A stretch of 64,000 bases of DNA from Pseudomonadota bacterium (GCA_026398735.1 JAPLSH010000019.1:25304-89303), one strand, 5' to 3'; positions 46,590 to 64,000 are shown, counted from the stretch's first letter. Numbers and translations: made by a program. The notes: generated by a model not told the origin, from the sequence alone.

Positions 46590-47690
46590 TCAAGTCAATT
46601 GCGCAGCCAATTCGTTGAATATGCGGCGTGGTTGTACCACACCGTGCGGTCCGACTTCGCCCAAACCCAAAAATTGGCCTGCAGGCGTATATAAACGGGC
46701 GCGTGCGCAAGCTACTGCACCAGGCACCTGCACGGCCTGGCCGTGCAGCAACCGGGGCACATCGGCCGCGGCGACAATCAGTCCCACCAATTGCGGCAAG
46801 GCGGCATCGGCAGGTAGCAGCACTACCGAGCCCGGGTCCTCCAGGACCTGCTCCAGGCTCACCATGGGGTGCGCATCAAAGGGCTCTACGGCTTCACGCC
46901 GCAAGGCCACCAAGTGGGCCACCGTGCCAATACGAGCTGCCAAATCCTCGGCCAGCACCCGCACGTAGGTGCCCTTAGAACAATCGACGCGCCAATGAGT
47001 ATCGTGGCCGTCTACCCCGAGCAATTGCAGGGATCTGATATCGATCGGGCGAGCTGCCCGTTCCACTTCGATACCCTGCCGGGCCAACTGATACAGCGGC
47101 TGACCGTCACGCTTGAGTGCCGAATACATCGGCGGCACTTGCATGCTGGGGCCATGCATCTGCACCGCCACCTCTGCCAAGCGCGCCTGAGCGTCGTGCG
47201 GCACTGCAACGGTTTGCACCACCGGACCTTCTACGTCACCCGTGCTGGTGCGCAAGCCCAGCCGGGCAGTGAACGTGTAGGTCTTGCGGCCTTCGAGCAG
47301 ATCGCCCGCCACCTTGGTGGCCTCGCCCAGACACAACGGCAACATTCCTGTGGCCATCGGATCAAGCGAACCGGTGTGACCGCCTTTGATGCGGCCCAGC
47401 GCGTAGCGAACGCGCTGCAAGGCTGCGTTCGAGGACAATCCCTGAGGTTTGTCCAGCAGCAACCCTGCAGCGCGATTGAGACCCTCTAACAGACCAGGAT
47501 CCGGCTCAGTGACACCAAACGGCACCACCAGCACCTTGGCCTCGCTGAGGTCATTGGCACAGGTGACGGCAGTGACCGTCACAGGGCCAACACGCGGGTC
47601 CTTGACCTCGCGACTGATGAGCTCGGCCAACGTACGAAGCATCTCGGCTTCAATACGCTGGTGTCGCTGAGTGGGCCCGCTGCGTGCCAT
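46590..47690 (-). CDS. in-frame fusion: truncated RbfA (about aa 1-76) joined to TruB pseudouridine synthase
   Basis: N-term MARSGPTQRHQRIEAEMLRTLAELISREVKDPRVGPVTVTAV...LEGLNRAAG (RbfA) joined to LLLDKPQGLSSNAALQRVRYALGRIKGGHTGSLDPMATGML (TruB); one uninterrupted ORF. Confidence 0.9.
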   Translation of the reverse strand: MARSGPTQRHQRIEAEMLRTLAELISREVKDPRVGPVTVTAVTCANDLSEAKVLVVPFGVTEPDPGLLEGLNRAAGLLLDKPQGLSSNAALQRVRYALGRIKGGHTGSLDPMATGMLPLCLGEATKVAGDLLEGRKTYTFTARLGLRTSTGDVEGPVVQTVAVPHDAQARLAEVAVQMHGPSMQVPPMYSALKRDGQPLYQLARQGIEVERAARPIDIRSLQLLGVDGHDTHWRVDCSKGTYVRVLAEDLAARIGTVAHLVALRREAVEPFDAHPMVSLEQVLEDPGSVVLLPADAALPQLVGLIVAAADVPRLLHGQAVQVPGAVACARARLYTPAGQFLGLGEVGPHGVVQPRRIFNELAAQLT

Positions 47691-52479: not shown

Positions 52480-53283
52480 TCAGCGCGGGTTGGTATGGTA
52501 GGTCTCGTCGACCATATGCTGAAGGTCCTGCTCGATGCAGGGCGCCGGCTCGCCAAACTCAATGTCGGTGCGCGTCAACTGTCGTGCCCGCATGACCCAT
52601 GGCTCGGCGAGCATCACTGGATCGACCACTGTGGCCTGATACTCGATCACATCGCCCACGCGCCTCAGTCGCTCCGTCACCTGCAATTGCTTACTGTGAA
52701 TCGCGCCATCGTCCGTCAGCCAACTCTCGTCATTGAAGTTGCGCGAATCCACCACGAGGGTATCGCCTTCCCAACGGCCCAAGGCATTACCCAACCAGGT
52801 CTCGCTGTCATCGTTGCGAGTGGCTTTAGGATCCAGCGGCACAACCCGGTAAAACGGTCCCGAGACATCTTCATACAGGAAGACCACCTCGCGGTTGGAC
52901 TGTACGATTTTGTCGGGCGGACCGATGCGCGGTAGGCCCGGCGGCCGGCAACGCAGCACTGGATCAAACTGCACTTGCTTGGCAGCCAGCTCGGCGACCC
53001 GCGCCTGGAACTGCGGCTTGTAACGCGGCCGATCCGGTGGCAAACGGGGCCGCACCGCCCCCGGCGCGGAAGCAGGATCAGCGCCCGCACAGCCGGCTAT
53101 GCACACCGAGCCGTTGGCCAATTGCTGCGGTTTAAGAAAATCGATGCCACCACCGTTTTCCCAGATACCGCTTAGATCCGGGTGGCCGTTGGCCAGCCGG
53201 GGCGTGCTGACAGGCGCAGCCGACCAGGAAAGCGTAGCCATGCACAAGAACAACAATCCCGACAATGCGGCTTTGGACTTCAT
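52480..53283 (-). CDS. secreted hypothetical protein, GRWEGDTLVV-type paralog 1
   Basis: Signal peptide MKSKAALSGLLFLCMATLSWSAA; LGRWEGDTLVVDSRNF. Confidence 0.8.
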   Translation of the reverse strand: MKSKAALSGLLFLCMATLSWSAAPVSTPRLANGHPDLSGIWENGGGIDFLKPQQLANGSVCIAGCAGADPASAPGAVRPRLPPDRPRYKPQFQARVAELAAKQVQFDPVLRCRPPGLPRIGPPDKIVQSNREVVFLYEDVSGPFYRVVPLDPKATRNDDSETWLGNALGRWEGDTLVVDSRNFNDESWLTDDGAIHSKQLQVTERLRRVGDVIEYQATVVDPVMLAEPWVMRARQLTRTDIEFGEPAPCIEQDLQHMVDETYHTNPR

Positions 53284-53306
53284 GGGGGTTCTCCGTGACT
53301 CGAGGT

Positions 53307-53723
53307 TCACTCGGTTGCCGCAGACTTATCGCTGGGATCCCGACCGAACTGAAAATTGCGCCCATCTGCATAGCGCAAGTTGACGATATAGCCGAGCCCA
53401 GCAGTGCCGTTGCGCGCCGGATTGGCAATTACTTCAACAGGCTTACCGTCGCCTTGGATGTCCTGCCGGGACAAACCTGCCTTGCGCATCATCGCCACCG
53501 GCAGCGACTCCAACTTCCAAACAGTGACCTTGCCCTCTGCATCAGTCACATCCACATAGATGTAGGTGTGCGGATTGATCCAGTCGACGCGGCTCACAGT
53601 GCCAGAGAACTTGACGCTGCGAGTGACGTCAAACTGGCCCGCCACAGAATGATGCGCAGCAGCTGGCAATGCCAGCAACGCCAACAGTGCTGCAGCGCGC
53701 AACCCGGACAGCAGAGTACTCAT
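53307..53723 (-). CDS. small secreted HHS protein (DUF6152-like) paralog 1
   Basis: LALPAAA-HHSVAGQFDVTRSVKFSGTVSRVDWINPHTYIYVDVTD; ATG at 53723. Confidence 0.8.
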   Translation of the reverse strand: MSTLLSGLRAAALLALLALPAAAHHSVAGQFDVTRSVKFSGTVSRVDWINPHTYIYVDVTDAEGKVTVWKLESLPVAMMRKAGLSRQDIQGDGKPVEVIANPARNGTAGLGYIVNLRYADGRNFQFGRDPSDKSAATE

Positions 53724-53733
53724 GGTGAGATCC

Positions 53734-54522
53734 TCATTTGAGCGTACTAAGACCGGCCTCATTGACCGGATTGCGATCGTTCTCGGCGCAGATGAATTCC
53801 ATCAGGCTCCAGTCACGCTGGCGCTTGAAGGTATGCGTGACGTGATAAGGCTGCGCCAGTGCATCGGGGTCTTCCATAGTGACCTCGATGCGCAACGTAT
53901 CAGCGTCTTTGGCGTCTTGCTGGATGCGCTCGGTGATACGCAGCTTGCTGCTGTGCTTCATGCCGGCACCCAACTCGGTGATCGTCTTTATGCCAATGGT
54001 ATCGACGACCAGCGTACCGCCTTCCCACCGGCCGACAGAATGACCGAAGATGCCGGGCTCCAAATCCGCCGGATGATCACGACCATCGGTATAGATGGAA
54101 CGCCACTGCATCCAGGCTTCGTGGTGGGCGGTGACGCGCCCGGGTGTAAACAGAAACTCAATGGGGTACTGCGCCGTGGCCAGCATGTTGGGCATGCCTG
54201 GCGGCATGCAGTTGGAGGTCTCGCGAGGCACCACGCCGTTGTTGTTCTTGACCTGCGCAGCCCAAGCCTCATATCGCGCAAGGTACTCGCCCTTGAACAC
54301 CGGCCGCTCCCGCGGCGGCTGACCCGCAGCAGGCGCCGCAGGGCGGGCCAACACCCAGACACCACCCCAATCCGGCAGCGAATTTAACTGCGCATAGGCA
54401 CCCTTAGGGAACGCTGCACTGACCTTACCGCCCTTGGCAGACTCAGCGGCACCACCCACACCAGCAGACGCCGCACAGGCCACGGCCAGCATACCAATGC
54501 GCAAGGCCCTTGAAATTTCCAT
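53734..54522 (-). CDS. secreted hypothetical protein, GRWEGDTLVV-type paralog 2
   Basis: MEISRALRIGMLAVACAASAGVGGAAE signal; VGRWEGGTLVVDTIGIK; ATG at 54522. Confidence 0.8.
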   Translation of the reverse strand: MEISRALRIGMLAVACAASAGVGGAAESAKGGKVSAAFPKGAYAQLNSLPDWGGVWVLARPAAPAAGQPPRERPVFKGEYLARYEAWAAQVKNNNGVVPRETSNCMPPGMPNMLATAQYPIEFLFTPGRVTAHHEAWMQWRSIYTDGRDHPADLEPGIFGHSVGRWEGGTLVVDTIGIKTITELGAGMKHSSKLRITERIQQDAKDADTLRIEVTMEDPDALAQPYHVTHTFKRQRDWSLMEFICAENDRNPVNEAGLSTLK

Positions 54523-54607
54523 GATCCACCCCCACTGCAATTGCACTGAGCATATAATGCCGGTAGTAAAAACTGAACGCATACCGCACTGCTTGCCTGG
54601 GGGTATC

Positions 54608-55027
54608 ATGAATTCTCGTCCGACGGTCATTGCTGCATTGCTGGGCTGCGCAGCCCTCGCACCGGTTGCCTTGGCACACCACTCTTTCGCCATGTTTGAT
54701 CAGGCCAAACAGGTATCGCTCAAGGGCACGGTCACAGAGTTCCAGTGGACCAACCCGCACGCGTTCATCCACGTCGAAATCACCACCGATGCCGGCGCCA
54801 AAGAAACTTGGGACATCGAGCTCAACAGCCCGAACAACCTCAAGCGCCAGGGCTGGAGCAGTACCAGCGTGAAGCCCGGCGATAAGGTCACCATGATCGC
54901 CAACCCACTGCGCGATCTCAGCCACAAAGGCGGCCTGTTTGTTGCCGTCACCCTGGCCGACGGCAAAGTGCTGGGTGACGCCACGCGTGCTGGCGGCGGC
55001 CCTGTAAACGTTCCCGTTGTGCCCTGA
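54608..55027 (+). CDS. small secreted HHS protein (DUF6152-like) paralog 2
   Basis: APVALA-HHSFAMFDQAKQVSLKGTVTEFQWTNPHAFIHVEI; ATG at 54608. Confidence 0.85.
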   Translation: MNSRPTVIAALLGCAALAPVALAHHSFAMFDQAKQVSLKGTVTEFQWTNPHAFIHVEITTDAGAKETWDIELNSPNNLKRQGWSSTSVKPGDKVTMIANPLRDLSHKGGLFVAVTLADGKVLGDATRAGGGPVNVPVVP

Positions 55028-55044
55028 ACTTGCGGAGATACACC

Positions 55045-55455
55045 ATGAAGCATAGCCACGTCATAGTTGCCGGCGCCGCACTGCTGGCCTTTTCCACTCC
55101 TGCCTTCGTGCATCACTCCGGCGCCATGTTCGATGGGGCTCGTGAGCAGACCATCGCAGGCACGGTCACAGAGTTCAACTGGACCAACCCGCACTCGTCC
55201 TTCAAGGTCGAAGTCACCGATGCGGCAGGCAAGAGTGCAATCTGGGCCATCGAAATGAACGGCCCTCAGAACCTTATGCATGACGGCTGGAAGCGCTCCA
55301 GCATCAAGCCGGGCGACAAAATCACCGCTGTGGTGCATCCGCTGCGTGATGGCAAGCCAGGCGGCTCGTACGTGTCGGTAACCCTGGCCGATGGCACCGT
55401 GCTCAAGGGCGTGGGTCCAGGTCAGTCGAGCTACGACGCGCCTGCTGCCAAGTAA
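55045..55455 (+). CDS. small secreted HHS protein (DUF6152-like) paralog 3
   Basis: STPAFV-HHSGAMFDGAREQTIAGTVTEFNWTNPHSSFKVEV; ATG at 55045. Confidence 0.85.
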   Translation: MKHSHVIVAGAALLAFSTPAFVHHSGAMFDGAREQTIAGTVTEFNWTNPHSSFKVEVTDAAGKSAIWAIEMNGPQNLMHDGWKRSSIKPGDKITAVVHPLRDGKPGGSYVSVTLADGTVLKGVGPGQSSYDAPAAK

Positions 55456-55500
55456 GGTCAGTAGTTCAAGTCAGTCGAACTACGACGCACCTGCTGCCAA
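55422..55500 (+). repeat. 30-bp direct repeat straddling the stop codon
   Basis: TCAGTCGAGCTACGACGCGCCTGCTGCCAA (55422-55451) and TCAGTCGAACTACGACGCACCTGCTGCCAA (55471-55500), 2 mismatches. Confidence 0.9.
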
Positions 55501-55519
55501 AAAAGAAGGCAGCAGGTCA

Positions 55520-55542
55520 GGCGGCCCCGATCCGGGGCCGCC
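55520..55542. terminator. perfect hairpin between convergent genes
   Basis: GGCGGCCCC(G)ATC(C)GGGGCCGCC; preceded by a second hairpin CTGCTGCC...GGCAGCAG (55491-55515). Confidence 0.7.
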
Positions 55543-55555
55543 CCGCCCTAACAGG

Positions 55556-56449
55556 CTACTTACTGGCTCGATCGTCCAGCGCCTTCTGACCCGCACCCGT
55601 GCTGGGCAGGTTCTGGTTCAGGTTGGGCAAGCACTCCACTTCGGGAATGTCGCTGTAATCCTGGCGCAAGAAGTCTTTGCTGCTCTTCCATTCACCGGGC
55701 CACATCTTCGGATCGGTCATCGTGTAATCGATGTGTATCTTCATGCCTTTATCGAGCATGGTGATGCGCTCCACGATCTGGAACTCATCGCTAATCGGAA
55801 TACCCGAGTCAATGTAATGCTCATTGGGCTCGATGTATTTGGTGGTCACCACCAGCGCATCTTTTTCCCACTTACCGATCGACTCACCGTTATAGGTGGG
55901 AACGGCGTAGTCAGAGTCCGAGTGCTCGCGACCATCCAGATAGATAAAGCGCATGCTATTGGTGAACGCAAACAGCATGTAAATGATAGTCGGCTTTTGA
56001 ATCATGCTGATCGGCCACACCCGCGTCATGATCATCGGCATGCCGATGGGGTAGCACTGGCCACTCACATCCCGGTAGGGCACGCCCTTCTTACGGGCTT
56101 CCTCGGCCTCACGCAGCGCTGTTTGCCCAGGTTCCTTGAAGGCCGGATAGTTGGGCCCGAAGCGAAAATCATTGAACGAGCGCCGCAGGTCCACAAACCA
56201 AGTGCCGGTCACATCAAATGGCGGCTTAGGACGCTTCTTGTTGAGGTTCTCGGGTGCTAACGCACCGTAGTATTTGGGGTGCTTATGTGCCAACTCGTCC
56301 ATGCGCTGCTGCGTAATACCACCGCCGGCAGTACGGCCCGCAGGCGGCGACGCCGGCGCTGCAGCTTGAGCAGCTGCCAGCGAGGGCACAGAACCGATGA
56401 CACAGGCTGCGACGACCGCAGTTAGAAAACGCGAAGCATTACGACTCAT
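55556..56449 (-). CDS. secreted hypothetical protein, GRWEGDTLVV-type paralog 3
   Basis: MSRNASRFLTAVVAACVIGSVPSLAAAQA signal; IGKWEKDALVVTTKYIEPNEHYIDSG. Confidence 0.8.
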   Translation of the reverse strand: MSRNASRFLTAVVAACVIGSVPSLAAAQAAAPASPPAGRTAGGGITQQRMDELAHKHPKYYGALAPENLNKKRPKPPFDVTGTWFVDLRRSFNDFRFGPNYPAFKEPGQTALREAEEARKKGVPYRDVSGQCYPIGMPMIMTRVWPISMIQKPTIIYMLFAFTNSMRFIYLDGREHSDSDYAVPTYNGESIGKWEKDALVVTTKYIEPNEHYIDSGIPISDEFQIVERITMLDKGMKIHIDYTMTDPKMWPGEWKSSKDFLRQDYSDIPEVECLPNLNQNLPSTGAGQKALDDRASK

Positions 56450-56481
56450 GGGATCCACTTCTCCGGACGATTAAATAGGAT

Positions 56482-58608
56482 TCAACGGGCAACCGGCGCA
56501 GCAGGCAAAGGATAGCGCAGCAATTGCTCAGCTACAGGCTGCAGTGGCGGCAAGGCGGTGCGCCCTGTTACCGGGTTGGCATAGTGATAGGGAATCTCGT
56601 AGACGATCGGGTACATCGCGATGAACTGCGTGGGCGGTGTATCGGGTGGGAACTCGGGGCTGATGCCGGGCATGCCACGACTGGAGCCCTTAGCCCAGCC
56701 GCCCTCGTAGTTGGCGTTCCATGTATTGAAGGTGTGTACCACTCTAAAGCGCCACAAACCCTCTTCTTTGACCGCCTGGTTCTCGTAAACCGAGCCGCCC
56801 ATCGTGGCGCGACCACCCAGGCTCATTTGCTGCTGCATACGCAAGCGGATACGCGCACTGAGACCATCATCGGACACATGAATGACCGGCTGCATCTGGA
56901 TGTGATTGCCCAAGCGTCCCTGCACCGGACCCTCTGCGCCACGGCCGAACACCGTGACCAGAAACGGACGCAGGCGAGCTCCCTGGTACACACCGCGCTG
57001 GGCAAGCTCGATGCTGCCATCGCGTGTGAACAGATTGGCCAGATCGTTCCACAGGTTCTTGTCCAGGTAGTAGCCATAGGCACTCTCTAGATTCTCAAGC
57101 TCGTGAAAGTCCCGCGCGCGCTCCACGATGCGCGCCGCATCGGTCAATGCAGCCTGAACATCGCGAACCGGCTGCGCCACCGCCGCTGGCGGTTTAAACA
57201 AAGCTGAAGAGGCAAGCTTGGCACCCGGACCGCCCACTGCCGGATAGGTCGCCACCTTGCCCGTTACCGGATTGGCGTAGTGATACGGCGGCACATGTGC
57301 ATTGGGATAGATTGCATAGACCTGAGTAGGCAAGCGATCCGGAGGCAATGACAAAAAAGGCCCGGGTGCAGGCTGCGCATCTTTGCCCCAACCTTGCTCG
57401 TAATCGGTGACGAAGGTCGGGAAGTAATGCACCGACTTGAACTTCCACGTGCCGTTGTCGTTGACGTAGCTGTTCTCGTAGAGGCCTTCACTCCACTGGC
57501 CGCCCTGACCATAAGTGCCAGTCATCGACAGTTCGCGGCTACGGGCACGGGCTGTCTTGCCATCGGGCGCCACAGTGACCACCGTCTGCAATTGCATATG
57601 ATCGTTGAGCCAACCGGGCACCAAGCCATGAGGACCCAACGTGCCGAGAAACGCACGCACCCGCGTTTTGCCGACATACACACCCTGTTGTCCGAACTCC
57701 AGAGTGGCGTCATTGGCAAACAGGTCAGCCACCTGATCCCATTGCGCGCGATCCAAGTAGTACCCATAGATGCGCTGCAGGTTTTCTATGTCCTGCTCGT
57801 CACGCAAACGTTGCGCGCGTCGCAACAAGTCTGCTGCCACGCGTCGTGCATCACCGGCAGGAGCCTGTTGAGGCAGCGCTGCACTGGCCCATGCCCTGCC
57901 ACCCGTCAGCGTAGTACCGGGGTTGGTGTAATGGAAAGTAGCAATGCACGCGGCAGGAAAGCCCTCACAGCTACCGTCTCGCGGCTCATCGGCCGGGTGC
58001 GCCAAGGTACGCGGTGCGCCGTTTGCCGCATCTGCGGATGGGACCACCCATCCCTTGGCATAGGGCGCGCTGAAGCCGCTGAAATAATTAAGGCGTGAGA
58101 TTTTCCAGACACCGCCGCGCTTGGCGTAGTCCATCTCATAGACACCCTCTGCCCAAGTAGCGCCCTTACCTACACCGCCAAAGTACGCATAGGCACGCCA
58201 GCGGCCCTTGGCGGTTTGCCCACCAGACTCCAGGTGCACCACCGGCTGAATGTTCATGTGGTTGTAAAGGCGGTTGTCGCCCAGCCCCACCTGTCCGACC
58301 GGCACATTGCCCACATTGCGAAACAGATGTTCGCGAATACTGGCCTTACCGACGAACACGCCAGCCGGATAATTGGCACGTGCGTCGTCAGTGAATAGTT
58401 CAGCCACATCGGCCCACAGGCCCTTGTCAACGTAATAGCCATAGACGCGCTGCAGCCGCTTGACCGATGCCAAGTCTTCGCCGGCTTGCACCTCTGCTGC
58501 CACACGCGCCAACTGTTCGTTCAGCGGCGCAGTAGACGTGGCACTGGCCGCCAACGCCGGTCCCGTCAGGACAGTTAGGAGCAGCGCAATAGCAACGGAT
58601 TTATGCAT
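56482..58608 (-). CDS. secreted protein with three SnoaL/NTF2-like domains
   Basis: Signal peptide MHKSVAIALLLTVLTGPALAA; three internal repeats each containing YGYY(V/L)D, NH(M/I), WxxGxYE/SVYEN and a terminal HYxNPxT motif. Confidence 0.85.
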   Translation of the reverse strand: MHKSVAIALLLTVLTGPALAASATSTAPLNEQLARVAAEVQAGEDLASVKRLQRVYGYYVDKGLWADVAELFTDDARANYPAGVFVGKASIREHLFRNVGNVPVGQVGLGDNRLYNHMNIQPVVHLESGGQTAKGRWRAYAYFGGVGKGATWAEGVYEMDYAKRGGVWKISRLNYFSGFSAPYAKGWVVPSADAANGAPRTLAHPADEPRDGSCEGFPAACIATFHYTNPGTTLTGGRAWASAALPQQAPAGDARRVAADLLRRAQRLRDEQDIENLQRIYGYYLDRAQWDQVADLFANDATLEFGQQGVYVGKTRVRAFLGTLGPHGLVPGWLNDHMQLQTVVTVAPDGKTARARSRELSMTGTYGQGGQWSEGLYENSYVNDNGTWKFKSVHYFPTFVTDYEQGWGKDAQPAPGPFLSLPPDRLPTQVYAIYPNAHVPPYHYANPVTGKVATYPAVGGPGAKLASSALFKPPAAVAQPVRDVQAALTDAARIVERARDFHELENLESAYGYYLDKNLWNDLANLFTRDGSIELAQRGVYQGARLRPFLVTVFGRGAEGPVQGRLGNHIQMQPVIHVSDDGLSARIRLRMQQQMSLGGRATMGGSVYENQAVKEEGLWRFRVVHTFNTWNANYEGGWAKGSSRGMPGISPEFPPDTPPTQFIAMYPIVYEIPYHYANPVTGRTALPPLQPVAEQLLRYPLPAAPVAR

Positions 58609-58614
58609 TGTTAA

Positions 58615-58905
58615 TCAGCCTTGAACCCAAGCTGCATCGGCCGGATGCATTTGCACCTGCAGCGGAACATTGCAGGATGCAGCAACGTCTCTGCTAAACG
58701 CATACGGCGGATAGGCGTTGCACATGTCGTCGAGTGTCCAGTCACCACAAGGATCGGTGTAGCCACAACTACTCCGGGTTAAGCCGGCAGGCGTAGCCGC
58801 CAACAGCGAACCCGGCAGCGCCGCAGCGACCAATGTGCCGCCGGCCACCAACGTGACTTGACCGAGGAATCCTCGGCGTGTGCTGACGAATCGAGCGTTA
58901 GCCAT
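58615..58905 (-). CDS. small Tat-signal Cys-rich protein
   Basis: MANARFVSTRRGFLGQVTLVAGGTLVAAALPGSLLAA then CGYTDPCGDWTLDDMCNAYPPYAFSRDVAASC; ATG at 58905. Confidence 0.75.
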   Translation of the reverse strand: MANARFVSTRRGFLGQVTLVAGGTLVAAALPGSLLAATPAGLTRSSCGYTDPCGDWTLDDMCNAYPPYAFSRDVAASCNVPLQVQMHPADAAWVQG

Positions 58906-58915
58906 TTGCATAACC

Positions 58916-60352
58916 TCAGGCCTGTACCAGCGACGGCAACTCGTCGGCACCAAACCAATTGGTGTGAGTACCGCCGCGCAACCGGAACGGCAACTTGACC
59001 GTGGCGATGGCGCCCTCCTCCAGTCGCTGTGCGTCGACGATCACCAGATCGCTCGACATCGATTCGTAATTGTTAGCAATGCCCATCAGGTAGCCATCAC
59101 CCTCGGCACGACCGCCTTTGCGCGGCATGAAACAGCTTTCCTGCAGGCTCTGCACAGGGCCCACAAAATAGCTGCTCGTCGCGCCGGTGTTGACGTCCAC
59201 ACGTTGGTACTGATTGGTGACAAAGCCGCCCATACCACCGGCTCGCGCCTTGTCAAACGGCAGGTTGGGATCGCGGTTGCCCACATAGCAATACTTGTAG
59301 GGCAAGGACAGAAATCGATCGTCCATGCGGGCCAGCACACCGTTGGCGGTGCTGACGACTTCTTCATCGAACGTATCTTTCTTGGAGTTCATGTTGAACG
59401 TCCAGCGACGGATCTGCGATGCATCGCGTTCACCACTGGAGGTGGGCAGTTCCATGGTGATACGCCCGTCCTTGTGGTCCCGCGCATTGAGGAAATGCAG
59501 CGTGTTGCGGGCAGGGCCCTTGAACCAGCGCACGTCTTTGCTTGTACCACCGCGCGGCACCACGGCAACCATCGTCGATAGGTTGCCATCCCATGCCCAC
59601 ATCGGCTCGCCGGTCTTGAGCCGCGCATCGCTGGTGGTACGCGCCACCAGCGGGATCAACACGTAATTCTGCGTGATGGCGCAGTCATGCATGATTCCCA
59701 CATACGGTGCCTTGAACCACACTTCATGGGTGATGTCGCCATGACGGTTCATGGTGTACACGGCTACGTCATTGGTCAGGTCACCCTTGGCTTGGTAACC
59801 ATAGGCGATCATCTCCCCGGTTACCGGATCGATCTTGGGGTGAGCCGACATGCTGGTGGCTGTATAGCGGCCGTTGAAGGTCCAGATGCCGCGCGTCTCG
59901 AGCGTGTGAGGATCGATGTGCCACGGCAGCGAGTCCTCCTTGAGGACCAGCAGTTTTCCGCCATGCCAATACAGGTGCGTATTGGCCGCCGAGCGCTCGA
60001 GCTTGGCAACGCTCGGATCGTCGGTGTAGTGGTTGCGATACACGCCATACAGACGCCGATGCGCCTCACGCTCCGCCTGCAGACGCGCTGTTTGCACATA
60101 CCGGCTACGAAAATTGACGTTGCCGTCCTTGAAGCGAAAGCGACTGACATGGCCATCACCATTAAAGCCTGTCGGCCATTCGTTCTGTGGCGGGCGGTAC
60201 TGGAAATCGCACTGAATCCGGTAGAACGTACCGTCGATGTCGGAGGGTATTTTTCCCCAAACCTCGCAGTCGTAGATGTCGGCCTCAAAGCGCGTGGGCG
60301 CATTAAAGCCGGTCGACGGGAACATCGGGTGTCCACGAAAATCCACTGCCAT
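58916..60352 (-). CDS. carotenoid cleavage oxygenase / lignostilbene dioxygenase family protein
   Basis: Candidate Fe-ligand His in SMSAHPK, GIMHDCAIT, NTLHFLNA, RGGTHTNW; GDGHVSRFRFKDG. Confidence 0.92.
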   Translation of the reverse strand: MAVDFRGHPMFPSTGFNAPTRFEADIYDCEVWGKIPSDIDGTFYRIQCDFQYRPPQNEWPTGFNGDGHVSRFRFKDGNVNFRSRYVQTARLQAEREAHRRLYGVYRNHYTDDPSVAKLERSAANTHLYWHGGKLLVLKEDSLPWHIDPHTLETRGIWTFNGRYTATSMSAHPKIDPVTGEMIAYGYQAKGDLTNDVAVYTMNRHGDITHEVWFKAPYVGIMHDCAITQNYVLIPLVARTTSDARLKTGEPMWAWDGNLSTMVAVVPRGGTSKDVRWFKGPARNTLHFLNARDHKDGRITMELPTSSGERDASQIRRWTFNMNSKKDTFDEEVVSTANGVLARMDDRFLSLPYKYCYVGNRDPNLPFDKARAGGMGGFVTNQYQRVDVNTGATSSYFVGPVQSLQESCFMPRKGGRAEGDGYLMGIANNYESMSSDLVIVDAQRLEEGAIATVKLPFRLRGGTHTNWFGADELPSLVQA

Positions 60353-60358
60353 GATCTA

Positions 60359-60374
60359 CCCCCCTCCCCCACCC
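60359..60374 (-). promoter_or_regulatory. G-rich (G-quadruplex-capable) Shine-Dalgarno region
   Basis: - strand GGGTGGGGGAGGGGGG ends 6 nt before the ATG of the carotenoid oxygenase. Confidence 0.5.
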
Positions 60375-60473
60375 TGGATGTCTTTGCACTTTGCACCGCT
60401 GGGCAAACAGGGGCAAGCGCCGAATCATTGAAAGTACAACGACTGCCGCCATAACGCGGCGCGCATGACAACC

Positions 60474-62558
60474 TTATGGCTTGCGCGAAGGCAGGCGCTG
60501 CAGAATGTAAGCCCCGATATCGGCAATCTGCTCAGGCGAATAGATATCGCGAAACACCGGCATGTTGTTGCGCCCTTGCAGGGTCACCATGGCGATCTGC
60601 GCGACATCCAGATTGCCCTGCACCAGCGTAGGTCCACCACCGTGACCACCCGTGCCGCTCTCCCCATGGCAAGCCACGCACGCGGCCTTGTAAAGCGCTT
60701 CGCCTTGATCGGCGACACCGGCGCGTGAAGAAACAGGCAACGCGGCCGCACGCTGCGGTCCTGCCGCAGCAGCTACCGGCACAGGGCCGATTTTGCCATC
60801 CAGCGAGAACATCCAGATGCCGTCGCCACGTTTGCCGTTGGCAAATGCCCCGCCACCGGCATGCACAGTGACGTACTGCTTACCCTTATGCTCAAAGGTA
60901 GTCACTGTGGTGTTGACGCCCGCATCGGTCTGGAACTCCCACAGCTTCACACCAGTGGTTTTGTCGAGCGCAGTCAGACGGCCATCGGCGCGCCCGACAA
61001 ACAACAAACCACCACCGGTGACTACGGCACCGCTGTAGCAGATCTCGCGCCACTGCTGACGCCACACCAGCCGGTTGGTGCGAACATCCAGCGCCGCCAG
61101 CACACCGCCATCGTGCACTTGCGACTGCGTGAAATTGCCACCCATATAGACCTTGTTCGGACCAGGTGTTTCCAGCGGCAGACGCACAACAAAGTTGCTG
61201 ATGCGATCCGACGCACACACATACAGCAAATAGCTGCCGGGGTCATAGGCACTGGGTGGCCAGTTCGCGCCACCCATCGTGCCGGGCTTCATCATCGTCG
61301 GCTGATCCCAGAACGGTGTGAAAATGCGCCCGCCGTTGGGGATCTCGCTGCTGCCGGTCAAACGCCGGGCATCCTCGGGAACGATATCGATCTGTTGCGG
61401 CACGATCGCATCGCCCACCGGATAAGGCTGCGTCGCCGCCGTGTGTTGGCGAGGCTCCTGCGGCACAGGCTTTTCGGTAATGCCCAGCAGCGGCTTGCCA
61501 GTCACGCGATCTAGAATGTAGGCCCAGCCGGTCTTGCCCACCTGTACCAAAGCCTTGCGCGACTTGCCGCCGTAGGGCGCATCGAACAGCACCACAGGAT
61601 TGGGCGAGTCATAGTCCCAAATGTCGTGATGCACTTGCTGAAAATGCCAGCGATAGGTTCCGTTGCGCACATCCAGTGCAACAATGGAATTGGCGAACAG
61701 GTTGTCGCCCTTGCGCACACTGCCGTTTAGATCAGGCCCCGGATTTGCCGTAGAGAAATAGATCATCCCCAACTCAGGGTCGATGGCGGGCGTTTGCCAA
61801 ATCGAAGCACCACCGCGCTGCCAGGCATCGCTGTCTTGTGGCCAAGTCTCATGACCTTTCTCACCTGGGCCGGGCACCGTAAAGAACGTCCACACCAGCT
61901 TGCCGGTCTTGGCGTCGTAGGCGCGCAGCTTGCCGCGCGTACCCATCTCGCCACCATTTACACCGGCAATCACCAGCCCATCGAAATAGAGCGGCGCTGC
62001 GGTAATCGCATAGCCGTCTTCCCAGCGTTCGACCAACGAGGTCCACAACACTGCACCCGTGCGCTGATCCAACGCAGTGAGCTTCGCATCGGCCTGCGTC
62101 AGATAGACCTTGCCATCACCCAAGGCTACGCCGCGATTGCCCCGACCAATGGGACTGCCTGCGCGCAGATCCGGATTGCCGTGATAGGTCCACAGGATCC
62201 GACCTGACTCGACATCCATGGCAAAGACATCGTTGGCGCCGTTGCTGACGTACAGCACGCCTTCAAAAGACAGTATCTGGGTCTGACCCGAGTGCCCAGG
62301 CGTGGTGCCGCTGTTCATGCTGGTGCGCCACAACGCACGCAGACCCGACACGTTGTCGCGATTGAGCAGCTTGAGGGGAGACCAGCGCTGGTTGTACAGC
62401 GTGCCGCCGTTGGTGATCCAACTCTGCGTCGGTGGACTCAAGAGCTGACTGGCTGAGAAGGCCGGAGCCAGCGTCACCTGTGCAGGTGTCTGAGCTAGCC
62501 CAGCAGTGGCCGTCAAAGACAGCACGACCAAGCAGACCAAAGAGGTAATACGGCGCAT
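60474..62558 (-). CDS. PQQ-dependent dehydrogenase with C-terminal cytochrome c motif (quinohemoprotein)
   Basis: SWITNGGTLYNQRWSPL; HHDIWDYDSPNPVVLFD; C-terminal AACVACHGESGTGGHGG; ATG at 62558. Confidence 0.92.
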   Translation of the reverse strand: MRRITSLVCLVVLSLTATAGLAQTPAQVTLAPAFSASQLLSPPTQSWITNGGTLYNQRWSPLKLLNRDNVSGLRALWRTSMNSGTTPGHSGQTQILSFEGVLYVSNGANDVFAMDVESGRILWTYHGNPDLRAGSPIGRGNRGVALGDGKVYLTQADAKLTALDQRTGAVLWTSLVERWEDGYAITAAPLYFDGLVIAGVNGGEMGTRGKLRAYDAKTGKLVWTFFTVPGPGEKGHETWPQDSDAWQRGGASIWQTPAIDPELGMIYFSTANPGPDLNGSVRKGDNLFANSIVALDVRNGTYRWHFQQVHHDIWDYDSPNPVVLFDAPYGGKSRKALVQVGKTGWAYILDRVTGKPLLGITEKPVPQEPRQHTAATQPYPVGDAIVPQQIDIVPEDARRLTGSSEIPNGGRIFTPFWDQPTMMKPGTMGGANWPPSAYDPGSYLLYVCASDRISNFVVRLPLETPGPNKVYMGGNFTQSQVHDGGVLAALDVRTNRLVWRQQWREICYSGAVVTGGGLLFVGRADGRLTALDKTTGVKLWEFQTDAGVNTTVTTFEHKGKQYVTVHAGGGAFANGKRGDGIWMFSLDGKIGPVPVAAAAGPQRAAALPVSSRAGVADQGEALYKAACVACHGESGTGGHGGGPTLVQGNLDVAQIAMVTLQGRNNMPVFRDIYSPEQIADIGAYILQRLPSRKP

Positions 62559-62635
62559 GTTTCCCCCGCCACCAACTGTTTTTCTGCAGGGACTATAGCC
62601 CAAGCGCTTTGATTCCAACGCCAGCAAGCTGGAAA

Positions 62636-64000
62636 TCAATTTCCTGCAGCGTTACCGAGTTTGCGCAGTAGCGCTGCGGTGTCGGGGTGCACCTCGGCAC
62701 CGGCCACGCCCGCACGGCCCGTACCACCTGCCTTGCCCTGCGCCACATCCAATGCTGTGGCACCGGCTTGGTCGCGAAGATCCAGCCACGCACCGACCTG
62801 CGCCAGATAGCTGACAAACTCGTTCCAGCCCCATAAGGCGGCGCCATGCAATGCTGCTTGACCGTTGTCGCGCACCGCATTGGGGTTAGCCCCGGCTGCA
62901 CGCAACAGTTTGGCGGTCTCGATGCTGCGCTGCTCATTGCGAAAACGCGCGCGGATGTCGATGGTGGTGGATCCAATTCCTGCCGCTGCCATGAACGGCG
63001 TAATACCCAACGAGTTGGGAAAATCAGCCTGGGCTTTGTAGCGGAGCAGTAGCGTTACTGCCTCCACGTCGCCGGCCTTGGCAGCGCGGATCAACGGCGT
63101 GGTGCCCACAGTCAGCATGCTGTCGCCACCACGGTCCTGTCCCAACGATCGATACGGGGGAAACAGCTTGAGCTGCATGTTGGGGTTGGCGCCCTTGTCC
63201 AGCAGCAGGCGCATCACATCCAGCGCCGTAGTGGCATCCCCAGAGGGTCGATCCGGACGCCCACCGCGCGGCGTGGTGTTGTAGTCCACAGCCGAATACA
63301 GCGGCGCTCTGCCCCATGTATCCCAGCGATTCACATCAGCGCCGGCCTTGATGAGGTAGGCCGCCGTGTCAAAGCGCGCGTTGAGCACCGCCATCAACAA
63401 AGGCGTGATGTTGTCTGGATCGGCCAGGTTGATTGCAGCGCCCCGCTCCACCAACGCCTTAGCGCAGTCGGTGCATCCCTCACGTGCTGCCAGCAGCAGC
63501 GCAGTAAAGCCACCGTTGGGACGATTCTGCGGCCGAGGCTCTGCAGACACTTTGCGCGGCCACTGCCGCACTGCCGAGCGCGCATCCACTTGTGCGCCGG
63601 CCTTGAGCAGCAAACGGACCATGTCGGGGTGACCCTGTGCAGAGGCCCACATAAGTGCGGTTTGCCCCCGCCACTGCTCCACTGCATTGACCTTGGCACC
63701 GGCAGCCAGCAACACTTTGGCGGCTTCTACACTGCCGGTCCGGGCCACCGTCATGAGCGCTGTTTGGCCCTCTGGGTTGGCCGACTCGACGTCCGCGCCA
63801 GCCTTGAGCAGGACGCGGATCAGCGTCGCATCACCGCGTTCGGCGGCCTCTGACAGCGGCGTGGCGCCGTAATCGTTGACGGCCTTCGGATCGGCACCGG
63901 CCTTGAGCAACTGCGTGACGCGCGCCATATCACCGTCGTGCACGGCCCAGTGCAACGGCGTCGTACCATCACCAGTGTCTGCAGGTGCAGCGCCGGGCAC
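62636..64000 (-). CDS. ankyrin-repeat protein, 5' end outside window
   Basis: Repeated GxTPLxxAxxxGxxxxVxxLLxAGAD units; ORF continues past 64000. Confidence 0.9.
   Translation of the reverse strand: MPGAAPADTGDGTTPLHWAVHDGDMARVTQLLKAGADPKAVNDYGATPLSEAAERGDATLIRVLLKAGADVESANPEGQTALMTVARTGSVEAAKVLLAAGAKVNAVEQWRGQTALMWASAQGHPDMVRLLLKAGAQVDARSAVRQWPRKVSAEPRPQNRPNGGFTALLLAAREGCTDCAKALVERGAAINLADPDNITPLLMAVLNARFDTAAYLIKAGADVNRWDTWGRAPLYSAVDYNTTPRGGRPDRPSGDATTALDVMRLLLDKGANPNMQLKLFPPYRSLGQDRGGDSMLTVGTTPLIRAAKAGDVEAVTLLLRYKAQADFPNSLGITPFMAAAGIGSTTIDIRARFRNEQRSIETAKLLRAAGANPNAVRDNGQAALHGAALWGWNEFVSYLAQVGAWLDLRDQAGATALDVAQGKAGGTGRAGVAGAEVHPDTAALLRKLGNAAGN

What the first reader, a model, noticed from the sequence alone, without database searches (positions are those of the whole stretch)
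52480..64000. Accessory periplasmic oxidation cluster resembling a stilbene / diarylpropane (lignin-dimer) pathway
Seen: ankyrin protein, PQQ dehydrogenase with cytochrome c motif, carotenoid/lignostilbene oxygenase, small Tat protein, triple NTF2-like protein and a GRWEG-type protein are consecutive on the - strand with short gaps. Next to them are three HHS proteins and two more GRWEG-type proteins. Established: in sphingomonads an NTF2-fold diarylpropane lyase (LdpA/LsdE type) makes lignostilbene, which a carotenoid-oxygenase-family enzyme then cleaves to aromatic aldehydes. PQQ dehydrogenases oxidise alcohols in the periplasm. Inference: this cluster may carry out an analogous, largely exported route, with the HHS and GRWEG families as unknown components.
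Basis: partly seen in the sequence, partly recalled or inferred. Interest (0 to 1): 0.75.

Follow-up and report, generated by a model that had tools for sequence, protein, structure and literature searches.

The report
Exported stilbene-making and stilbene-cutting gene cluster
A group of humic-lake and bog bacteria related to Steroidobacteraceae carries a conserved gene cluster that appears to move a pathway for breaking plant phenolic dimers (make a stilbene, then cut it) out of the cell interior into the periplasm, with the cutting enzyme probably carried out by a small export partner; this layout is not described for the known lignin-dimer pathways.

Summary
The genes are real, and the core of the interpretation survives in a sharper form. 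The oxygenase is a lignostilbene-dioxygenase-type enzyme: all four Fe ligands and the phenol-binding Phe/Tyr/Lys are present. The NTF2-like protein is three tandem, exported domains whose closest solved relatives are the 8ABT/8ABV SnoaL proteins, which I take to be LdpA (no other PDB hit below E 0.03). All three domains keep the conserved His that is Gln in 8ABU. Across 296 genomes of the order, every genome with the oxygenase orthologue (11) also has the tandem lyase (13 in all). They are neighbours in 14 assemblies. In most relatives the lyase is fused to a BD-FAE esterase, and a TonB receptor often joins. The oxygenase has no signal peptide, but all 17 orthologues checked are followed within about 50 nt by a ~90-aa twin-arginine protein; 11 of 12 other oxygenases are not. 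I infer Tat 'hitchhiker' export and a periplasmic stilbene pathway. Corrections: HHS = DUF6152 (22 copies in the genome), pairing or fusing with GRWEG genome-wide, so not cluster-specific; the genus lacks pqqC, so the PQQ step needs scavenged cofactor or may be inactive. Substrate and Tat export are untested. New variant of a known kind.

The parts
62636..64000 (-). Ankyrin-repeat protein, cut by window end (480 aa in the genome, Sec-like signal peptide)
   Evidence: Pfam Ank_2 E 1.8e-62; L053:1940-3382; conserved upstream of PQQ-DH in L008, L012 and next to DUF1552 in L016/L099
60474..62558 (-). Quinohaemoprotein alcohol-dehydrogenase-like protein with C-terminal cytochrome c (CVACH); signal peptide
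   Evidence: PF01011 E 3e-108, Cytochrome_CBB3; closest PDB PedH-type 6zcv; vicinal Cys pair replaced by Gly-Ser; HDIWDYD motif present
58916..60352 (-). Lignostilbene-dioxygenase-type carotenoid oxygenase family protein, no signal peptide
   Evidence: PF03055 E 2.9e-111; NCBIfam LigStilDioxAlpha E 4.6e-144, below its 800-bit cut-off; LSD residues F59/Y101/K134 and four His conserved against LSD4
58615..58911 (-). Small twin-arginine (Tat) signal protein, proposed export partner of the oxygenase
   Evidence: STRRGFLGQ motif plus hydrophobic stretch; equivalent ORF after the LSD stop in 17 of 17 cluster LSDs
56482..58608 (-). Exported protein of three tandem LdpA-like SnoaL_4 (NTF2-fold) domains; relatives carry an extra C-terminal BD-FAE esterase that this gene lacks
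   Evidence: SnoaL_4 x3; 8abt/8abv E 1.8e-29 and 3.9e-28; residue table; esterase in relatives
55556..56449 (-). GRWEG-family protein 1 (signal peptide; no Pfam family)
   Evidence: Follows SnoaL3 in L008-L012, L095, L096; model pLDDT 78, best fold matches FABP/CRABP-like barrels, weak
55045..55455 (+). DUF6152 (HHS) protein a
   Evidence: PF19649 E 1.3e-31
54608..55027 (+). DUF6152 (HHS) protein b
   Evidence: PF19649 E 2e-37; OB-fold-like model
53734..54522 (-). GRWEG-family protein 2 (start chosen before the signal peptide)
   Evidence: Alignment A1; conserved position
53307..53723 (-). DUF6152 (HHS) protein c
   Evidence: PF19649 E 3.7e-24
52480..53283 (-). GRWEG-family protein 3; next gene downstream is rimP
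   Evidence: Alignment A1; conserved next to rimP-nusA only within the genus

Best explanation
The core (oxygenase, Tat partner, tandem lyase) is a periplasmic pathway for phenolic plant dimers of lignin/stilbenoid type. Proposed steps: (1) dimers cross the outer membrane, through a cluster TonB receptor in relatives; (2) where present, the fused BD-FAE-type esterase frees an esterified phenol; (3) the tandem LdpA-like SnoaL domains, exported by Sec or as a lipoprotein, dehydrate and deformylate the side chain to a 4-hydroxystilbene plus formaldehyde; (4) the lignostilbene-type dioxygenase folds and loads Fe in the cytoplasm, binds the small Tat-signal protein encoded directly after it and is carried across the membrane as a hitchhiker, then cleaves the stilbene with O2 to two aromatic aldehydes; (5) c-type-cytochrome dehydrogenases (PQQ-type and PSCyt/DUF1592) may oxidise alcohols, aldehydes or formaldehyde; GRWEG and DUF6152 proteins are accessory periplasmic proteins, possibly hydrophobic-ligand binding. 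Shown: gene content, co-occurrence, adjacency, active-site residues, export signals judged by sequence. Inferred: substrate, reaction order, Tat hitchhiking, roles in steps 1, 2 and 5.
For: LSD active site complete: four His, F59, Y101, K134 (residue roles from PMC8191317). Lyase domains: only LdpA-type structures match in the PDB (E 1.8e-29; next hit 0.03), including the C-terminal extension outside the Pfam domain; Y35, Y37, Y38, D40, H97, Q101, R116, R118, Y147, E148 kept in all three domains; H97 is Gln in 8abu. A deformylating NTF2 lyase followed by an LSD is an established pair (PMC11323797, PMC12997858). Co-occurrence: 11 of 11 genomes with the LSD orthologue have the tandem lyase, 13 of 296 overall; hypergeometric P 2e-18, uncorrected for relatedness. 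Adjacent, same strand, in 14 assemblies. Tat partner in 17 of 17 cluster LSDs, often with a 4-nt start/stop overlap, against 1 of 12 other LSD-type genes (Fisher 3e-7); two paralogues in the same genome carry a fused Tat signal, so Tat export of LSD-type enzymes is plausible here. TatC present. Lyase has a signal peptide, or a lipobox in L015/L018. Active-site esterase and TBDR in relatives.
Against: No activity, expression or localisation data. The SnoaL domains form three clades of their own outside the LdpA clade, so the substrate may differ. The LSD has Leu at Ser283 and Val where LSD4 has the second-shell Glu353. This genus lacks pqqC. The window species lacks the esterase and the TBDR at this locus. 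The Tat partner could be an independent small protein. No signal-peptide predictor or complex model was available.
Confidence: 0.5

Rival explanations
1. Same stilbene chemistry, but split between compartments: the tandem lyase works in the periplasm, the stilbene is imported and the oxygenase stays in the cytoplasm; the small Tat protein is a separate periplasmic component.
For: The oxygenase has no signal peptide in any orthologue (conserved start MAVDFR.HP); known LSDs have not been reported as exported in the papers read; Tat mature parts vary strongly in sequence.
Against: Strict 17 of 17 pairing with a Tat ORF and frequent 4-nt overlap; fused Tat-LSD paralogues in the same genome.
Confidence: 0.22
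2. The cluster processes another hydrophobic substrate (stilbenoid glycosides or esters, lignans, apocarotenoids, terpenoid or steroid side chains), with SnoaL domains acting as dehydratases or isomerases and the oxygenase cutting a different conjugated double bond.
For: SnoaL_4 folds include scytalone and bile-acid dehydratases (weak PDB hits); the lyase clades are distinct from LdpA; an LSD from P. brassicacearum showed weak carotenoid activity (PMC6097328); fused esterase in relatives.
Against: Phenol-binding Tyr101/Lys134/Phe59 kept in every cluster orthologue; LdpA-type is the only close structure.
Confidence: 0.2
3. The genes are a loose accessory island of generally expanded periplasmic families that happen to sit together; only the LSD-Tat-SnoaL3 trio is a unit.
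For: 22 DUF6152, 7 LSD-type genes and a second SnoaL array in this genome; DUF6152-GRWEG pairs occur genome-wide; ankyrin, PQQ and TBDR vary between relatives.
Against: GRWEG1, DUF6152a/b and GRWEG2 keep place and order in three genera besides the window's (L094, L095, L096).
Confidence: 0.3

Closest known systems
Sphingomonad beta-1 pathway: LdpA (formerly LsdE) plus LsdA
   Same: NTF2-fold cofactorless lyase makes lignostilbene, lignostilbene dioxygenase cleaves it (PMC12997858); closest solved structures to the window lyase
   Different: LdpA is a single-domain protein; here three tandem exported domains, often fused to an esterase; own clades in the tree; dioxygenase paired with a Tat protein
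PcfL plus LsdD of Novosphingobium aromaticivorans (beta-5 pathway)
   Same: Same logic of formaldehyde lyase followed by LSD (PMC11323797)
   Different: Different domain architecture, export signals and host lineage; substrate here unknown
Tat hitchhiker pairs: FAD-glucose dehydrogenase gamma subunit, PaoABC
   Same: A Tat-signal subunit escorts signal-less partner subunits (PMC6719666, PMC4273604)
   Different: Partner here is a lignostilbene-type Fe dioxygenase; small protein not shown to be homologous; export untested
Quinohaemoprotein alcohol dehydrogenases (PedH type, type II ADH)
   Same: PQQ beta-propeller domain plus cytochrome c
   Different: Vicinal Cys pair absent; genus without pqqC
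DUF6152 (PF19649), PSCyt/DUF1592 and DUF1552 families
   Same: Direct family members
   Different: No function known for these families; PMC5615132 notes PSCyt3 genes next to unknown-family genes in freshwater Verrucomicrobia

Membership tests
Lignostilbene (stilbene-cleaving) dioxygenase, LSD/SCO | Four Fe-binding His (167, 218, 284, 476 in LSD4) | tested here: met
   H171, H222, H286, H463
Lignostilbene (stilbene-cleaving) dioxygenase, LSD/SCO | Phenol-binding Phe59, Tyr101, Lys134 | tested here: met
   F63, Y105, K138, kept in all cluster orthologues
Lignostilbene (stilbene-cleaving) dioxygenase, LSD/SCO | Second-shell acidic residues at 135, 353, 418 | tested here: inconclusive
   E135 and E418 kept; 353 is Val in the window, Val/Leu/Phe/Pro in orthologues. 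Also variable in other paralogues
Lignostilbene (stilbene-cleaving) dioxygenase, LSD/SCO | Score over NCBIfam equivalog cut-off | tested here: not met
   480.6 bits against 800 for LigStilDioxAlpha: a family relative, not that equivalog
Lignostilbene (stilbene-cleaving) dioxygenase, LSD/SCO | Cleaves a 4-hydroxystilbene | not testable with these tools
   needs enzyme assay
LdpA/PcfL gamma-formaldehyde lyase | Sequence homology over the whole domain incl. C-terminal extension | tested here: met
   8abt 10-229 aligned to domain 2, E 1.8e-29; that 8abt is LdpA rests on my own knowledge
LdpA/PcfL gamma-formaldehyde lyase | Candidate catalytic His (His97 of chain 8abt, Gln in 8abu) and surrounding conserved residues | tested here: met
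   present in all three window domains; that it is catalytic is inferred, the LdpA paper was not available
LdpA/PcfL gamma-formaldehyde lyase | Groups inside the LdpA clade | tested here: not met
   d1, d2, d3 form separate clades; LdpA groups with single-domain proteins
LdpA/PcfL gamma-formaldehyde lyase | Releases formaldehyde and a stilbene | not testable with these tools
   needs assay
Tat hitchhiker pair | Signal-less enzyme encoded beside a small twin-arginine protein, conserved | tested here: met
   17 of 17
Tat hitchhiker pair | Physical complex and Tat-dependent co-export | not testable with these tools
   complex modelling and fractionation not available
PQQ-dependent alcohol dehydrogenase | PQQ domain family and catalytic Asp motif | tested here: met
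   PF01011 3e-108; HDIWDYD
PQQ-dependent alcohol dehydrogenase | Vicinal Cys pair | tested here: not met
   Gly-Ser at the position aligned to CC of PedH
PQQ-dependent alcohol dehydrogenase | Host makes PQQ | tested here: not met
   pqqC absent in 4 of 4 genomes of the genus; found in G199, G227, G245, G136
DUF6152 | Pfam score over cut-off | tested here: met
   85-128 bits against 27

The most novel reading that the evidence does not exclude
A complete stilbene-forming and stilbene-cleaving pathway works in the periplasm of Steroidobacteraceae-type bacteria, with the first known lignostilbene dioxygenase that is exported by riding on a separate small Tat-signal protein, and with a three-domain exported formaldehyde lyase that in most relatives is fused to an esterase.
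Probability: 0.42. Interest if true: 0.72.

Novelty: new variant of a known kind. Interest (0 to 1): 0.6.

Why it matters
In the published lignin-dimer pathways, as far as I could read, the lyase and dioxygenase are not described as exported. A conserved periplasmic version in bacteria from humic lakes and bogs would show how such cells handle toxic aldehydes and formaldehyde outside the cytoplasm, would add a dioxygenase class to Tat hitchhikers, would give a ready lyase-esterase fusion for lignin conversion, and would offer a first handle on DUF6152, GRWEG and PSCyt/DUF1552 families that have no known role.

Tried and rejected
Carotenoid cleavage as the primary role of the oxygenase: less likely, because LSD-type structures match at E 1e-98 to 1e-108 and carotenoid enzymes only at 1e-31 or weaker, with phenol-binding residues kept. 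HHS and GRWEG as pathway-specific parts: rejected, because they pair throughout the genome, with three fused ORFs. PQQ dehydrogenase as an assured step: not accepted, pqqC absent; the first negative was uninformative until the order-wide search gave positives. NCBIfam T4SS effector names on the ankyrin protein: rejected, far below cut-off. First reading of the ~1010-aa relatives as four SnoaL domains: wrong; the C-terminus is an esterase. One apparent Tat-negative cluster LSD (L098) was a start-codon artefact and has the Tat ORF. Papers on DUF6152, Steroidobacter with lignostilbene, and freshwater MAGs with lignostilbene: none found. The LdpA structure paper was not held, so its catalytic residues could not be checked directly. 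GRWEG and DUF6152 fold matches are weak (TMq 0.3-0.5) and only suggest a calycin-like barrel and an OB-fold.

Full report
OBSERVATION. The window is G000:C13:25304-89303 of a 2.77-Mb genome, 98% complete. Several other relatives are boreal-lake, pond, bog and fen MAGs judging by isolate names. Pfam gives ankyrin, PQQ plus cytochrome c, RPE65/CCO, nothing for the Tat protein, three SnoaL_4 domains, nothing for GRWEG and DUF6152 for the three HHS proteins. The operon continues past the window into DUF1552 (L053:3386-4705) and a DUF1592/PSCyt cytochrome protein (L053:4736-7333).

THE OXYGENASE. PDB relatives are lignostilbene-type dioxygenases (E 1e-98 to 1e-108); carotenoid enzymes come far behind. 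On the LSD4 numbering, whose roles are given in PMC8191317, the window protein keeps His167/218/284/476, Phe59, Tyr101, Lys134, Asn120, Thr121, Glu135 and Glu418; Ser283 is Leu and Glu353 is Val. All seven LSD-type genes of the genome keep Tyr101 and Lys134. The protein starts MAVDFRGHPMF in most orthologues, with no signal peptide.

THE LYASE. The SnoaL3 protein has a signal peptide; L015 and L018 have a lipobox. Its only close PDB relatives are 8abt, 8abu and 8abv (E 1.8e-29 to 3.9e-28; next 0.03). These are titled only SnoaL-like; that they are LdpA rests on my own knowledge, since the structure paper was not held. Tyr35, Tyr37, Tyr38, Asp40, His97, Gln101, Arg116, Arg118, Tyr147, Glu148 and Trp158 occur in all three window domains. 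His97 is Gln in 8abu, which I read as a catalytic-residue variant (inference). In the f6 genomes L068/L069 domain 2 has Arg at this site. A tree puts d1, d2 and d3 in three clades, each with nearly all orthologues, and 8abt/8abv with single-domain homologues: an old triplication beside LdpA, not within it. In relatives of about 1010 aa a C-terminal BD-FAE-type hydrolase with HGGG, GHSAG and the His is fused; window and L008 lack it.

CO-OCCURRENCE AND ORDER. Of 296 genomes of the order, 13 have the tandem lyase at E below 1e-180 and 11 have the oxygenase orthologue (70% identity or more); all 11 are among the 13. The hypergeometric P is 2e-18, ignoring relatedness. The two lyase-only genomes are 82% and 85% complete. 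LSD then SnoaL3 on one strand is seen in window, L008/L091, L009, L010/L093, L012/L092, L011/L094, L013, L014, L015, L018, L095, L096, L097 and L098. GRWEG1, DUF6152a/b and GRWEG2 follow in L008-L012, L095 and L096 (L011 is cut by the contig end); a TonB receptor lies upstream of LSD in L009, L010, L012, L095 and L096. In the f6 family (L097, L098) only PQQ, LSD, Tat and SnoaL3 remain. Outside the order, single LdpA-like proteins and more distant tandem arrays occur in one other family, without a neighbouring oxygenase of this type.

THE TAT PARTNER. Between LSD and SnoaL3 there is an ORF of roughly 85-110 aa with a twin-arginine motif and a hydrophobic stretch. A systematic look finds it, 4 nt before to about 44 nt after the LSD stop, in 16 of 17 cluster LSDs, and in the 17th on inspection. 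Many start on a 4-nt overlap. Of 12 other LSD-type genes, one (L121, 50% identical paralogue) has it; two own-genome paralogues carry a fused Tat signal instead. TatC is present. A Tat hitchhiker mechanism is established for FAD-glucose dehydrogenase and PaoABC (PMC6719666, PMC4273604). Export of this oxygenase is therefore inferred, not shown.

OTHER GENES. The PQQ protein matches PedH-type enzymes, keeps HDIWDYD, but lacks the vicinal Cys pair. pqqC is absent from all four genomes of the genus but present in G199, G227, G245 and G136, which also have the cluster. So oxidation here needs imported PQQ or does not happen. DUF6152 occurs 22 times in the genome; 19 sites have a GRWEG gene within about 1.5 kb and three ORFs fuse both. 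AlphaFold models suggest a FABP/calycin-like barrel for GRWEG1 and an OB-fold for DUF6152, both with weak matches. Five LigB-type extradiol dioxygenase genes suggest the cell can open aromatic rings.

CONCLUSION. The established logic of deformylating lyase followed by lignostilbene dioxygenase (PMC11323797, PMC12997858) fits, but the parts are rearranged for the periplasm. Best reading: periplasmic pathway for phenolic plant dimers (0.5). It works like LdpA-LsdA; the lyase is not filed as LdpA because the clade test was not met. Filed as a new variant of a known kind.

Noticed in passing
46590-47690 (-): One 366-aa ORF joins the first ~78 residues of RbfA to TruB; three genomes of the same genus keep about 140 more bases between the two matches, so the window genome has a deletion joining the genes in frame, or an assembly error.
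   Followed up: partly
L045:1465-2640, L049:757-1836, L051:676-1812: Three single ORFs fuse a DUF6152 domain to a GRWEG domain, evidence that the two unknown families work together; 19 of 22 DUF6152 sites in the genome have a GRWEG gene close by.
   Followed up: partly
L055:3275-7387 (G000:C13:188-192 kb): A second array of six exported LdpA-like domains in three genes beside glcDEF-like genes; several domains have lost the conserved His.
   Followed up: partly
L053:3386-7333 and L056:15660-19928: DUF1592/PSCyt cytochrome - DUF1552 (Tat) - ankyrin gene order repeated at two sites of the genome, one directly upstream of this cluster.
   Followed up: no
L058:16558-18156 and L060:5264-6841: Two lignostilbene-type oxygenases with their own fused twin-arginine signal peptides, so LSD-type enzymes built for export exist in this genome.
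   Followed up: partly
whole genome: PQQ-dehydrogenase-like genes in a genus with no pqqC in four genomes, suggesting PQQ scavenging or empty quinoproteins.
   Followed up: partly
L133:8450-10573, L135:8872-10908: Three-domain LdpA-like arrays in another family of the phylum, one beside a TonB receptor, without a neighbouring lignostilbene oxygenase.
   Followed up: no
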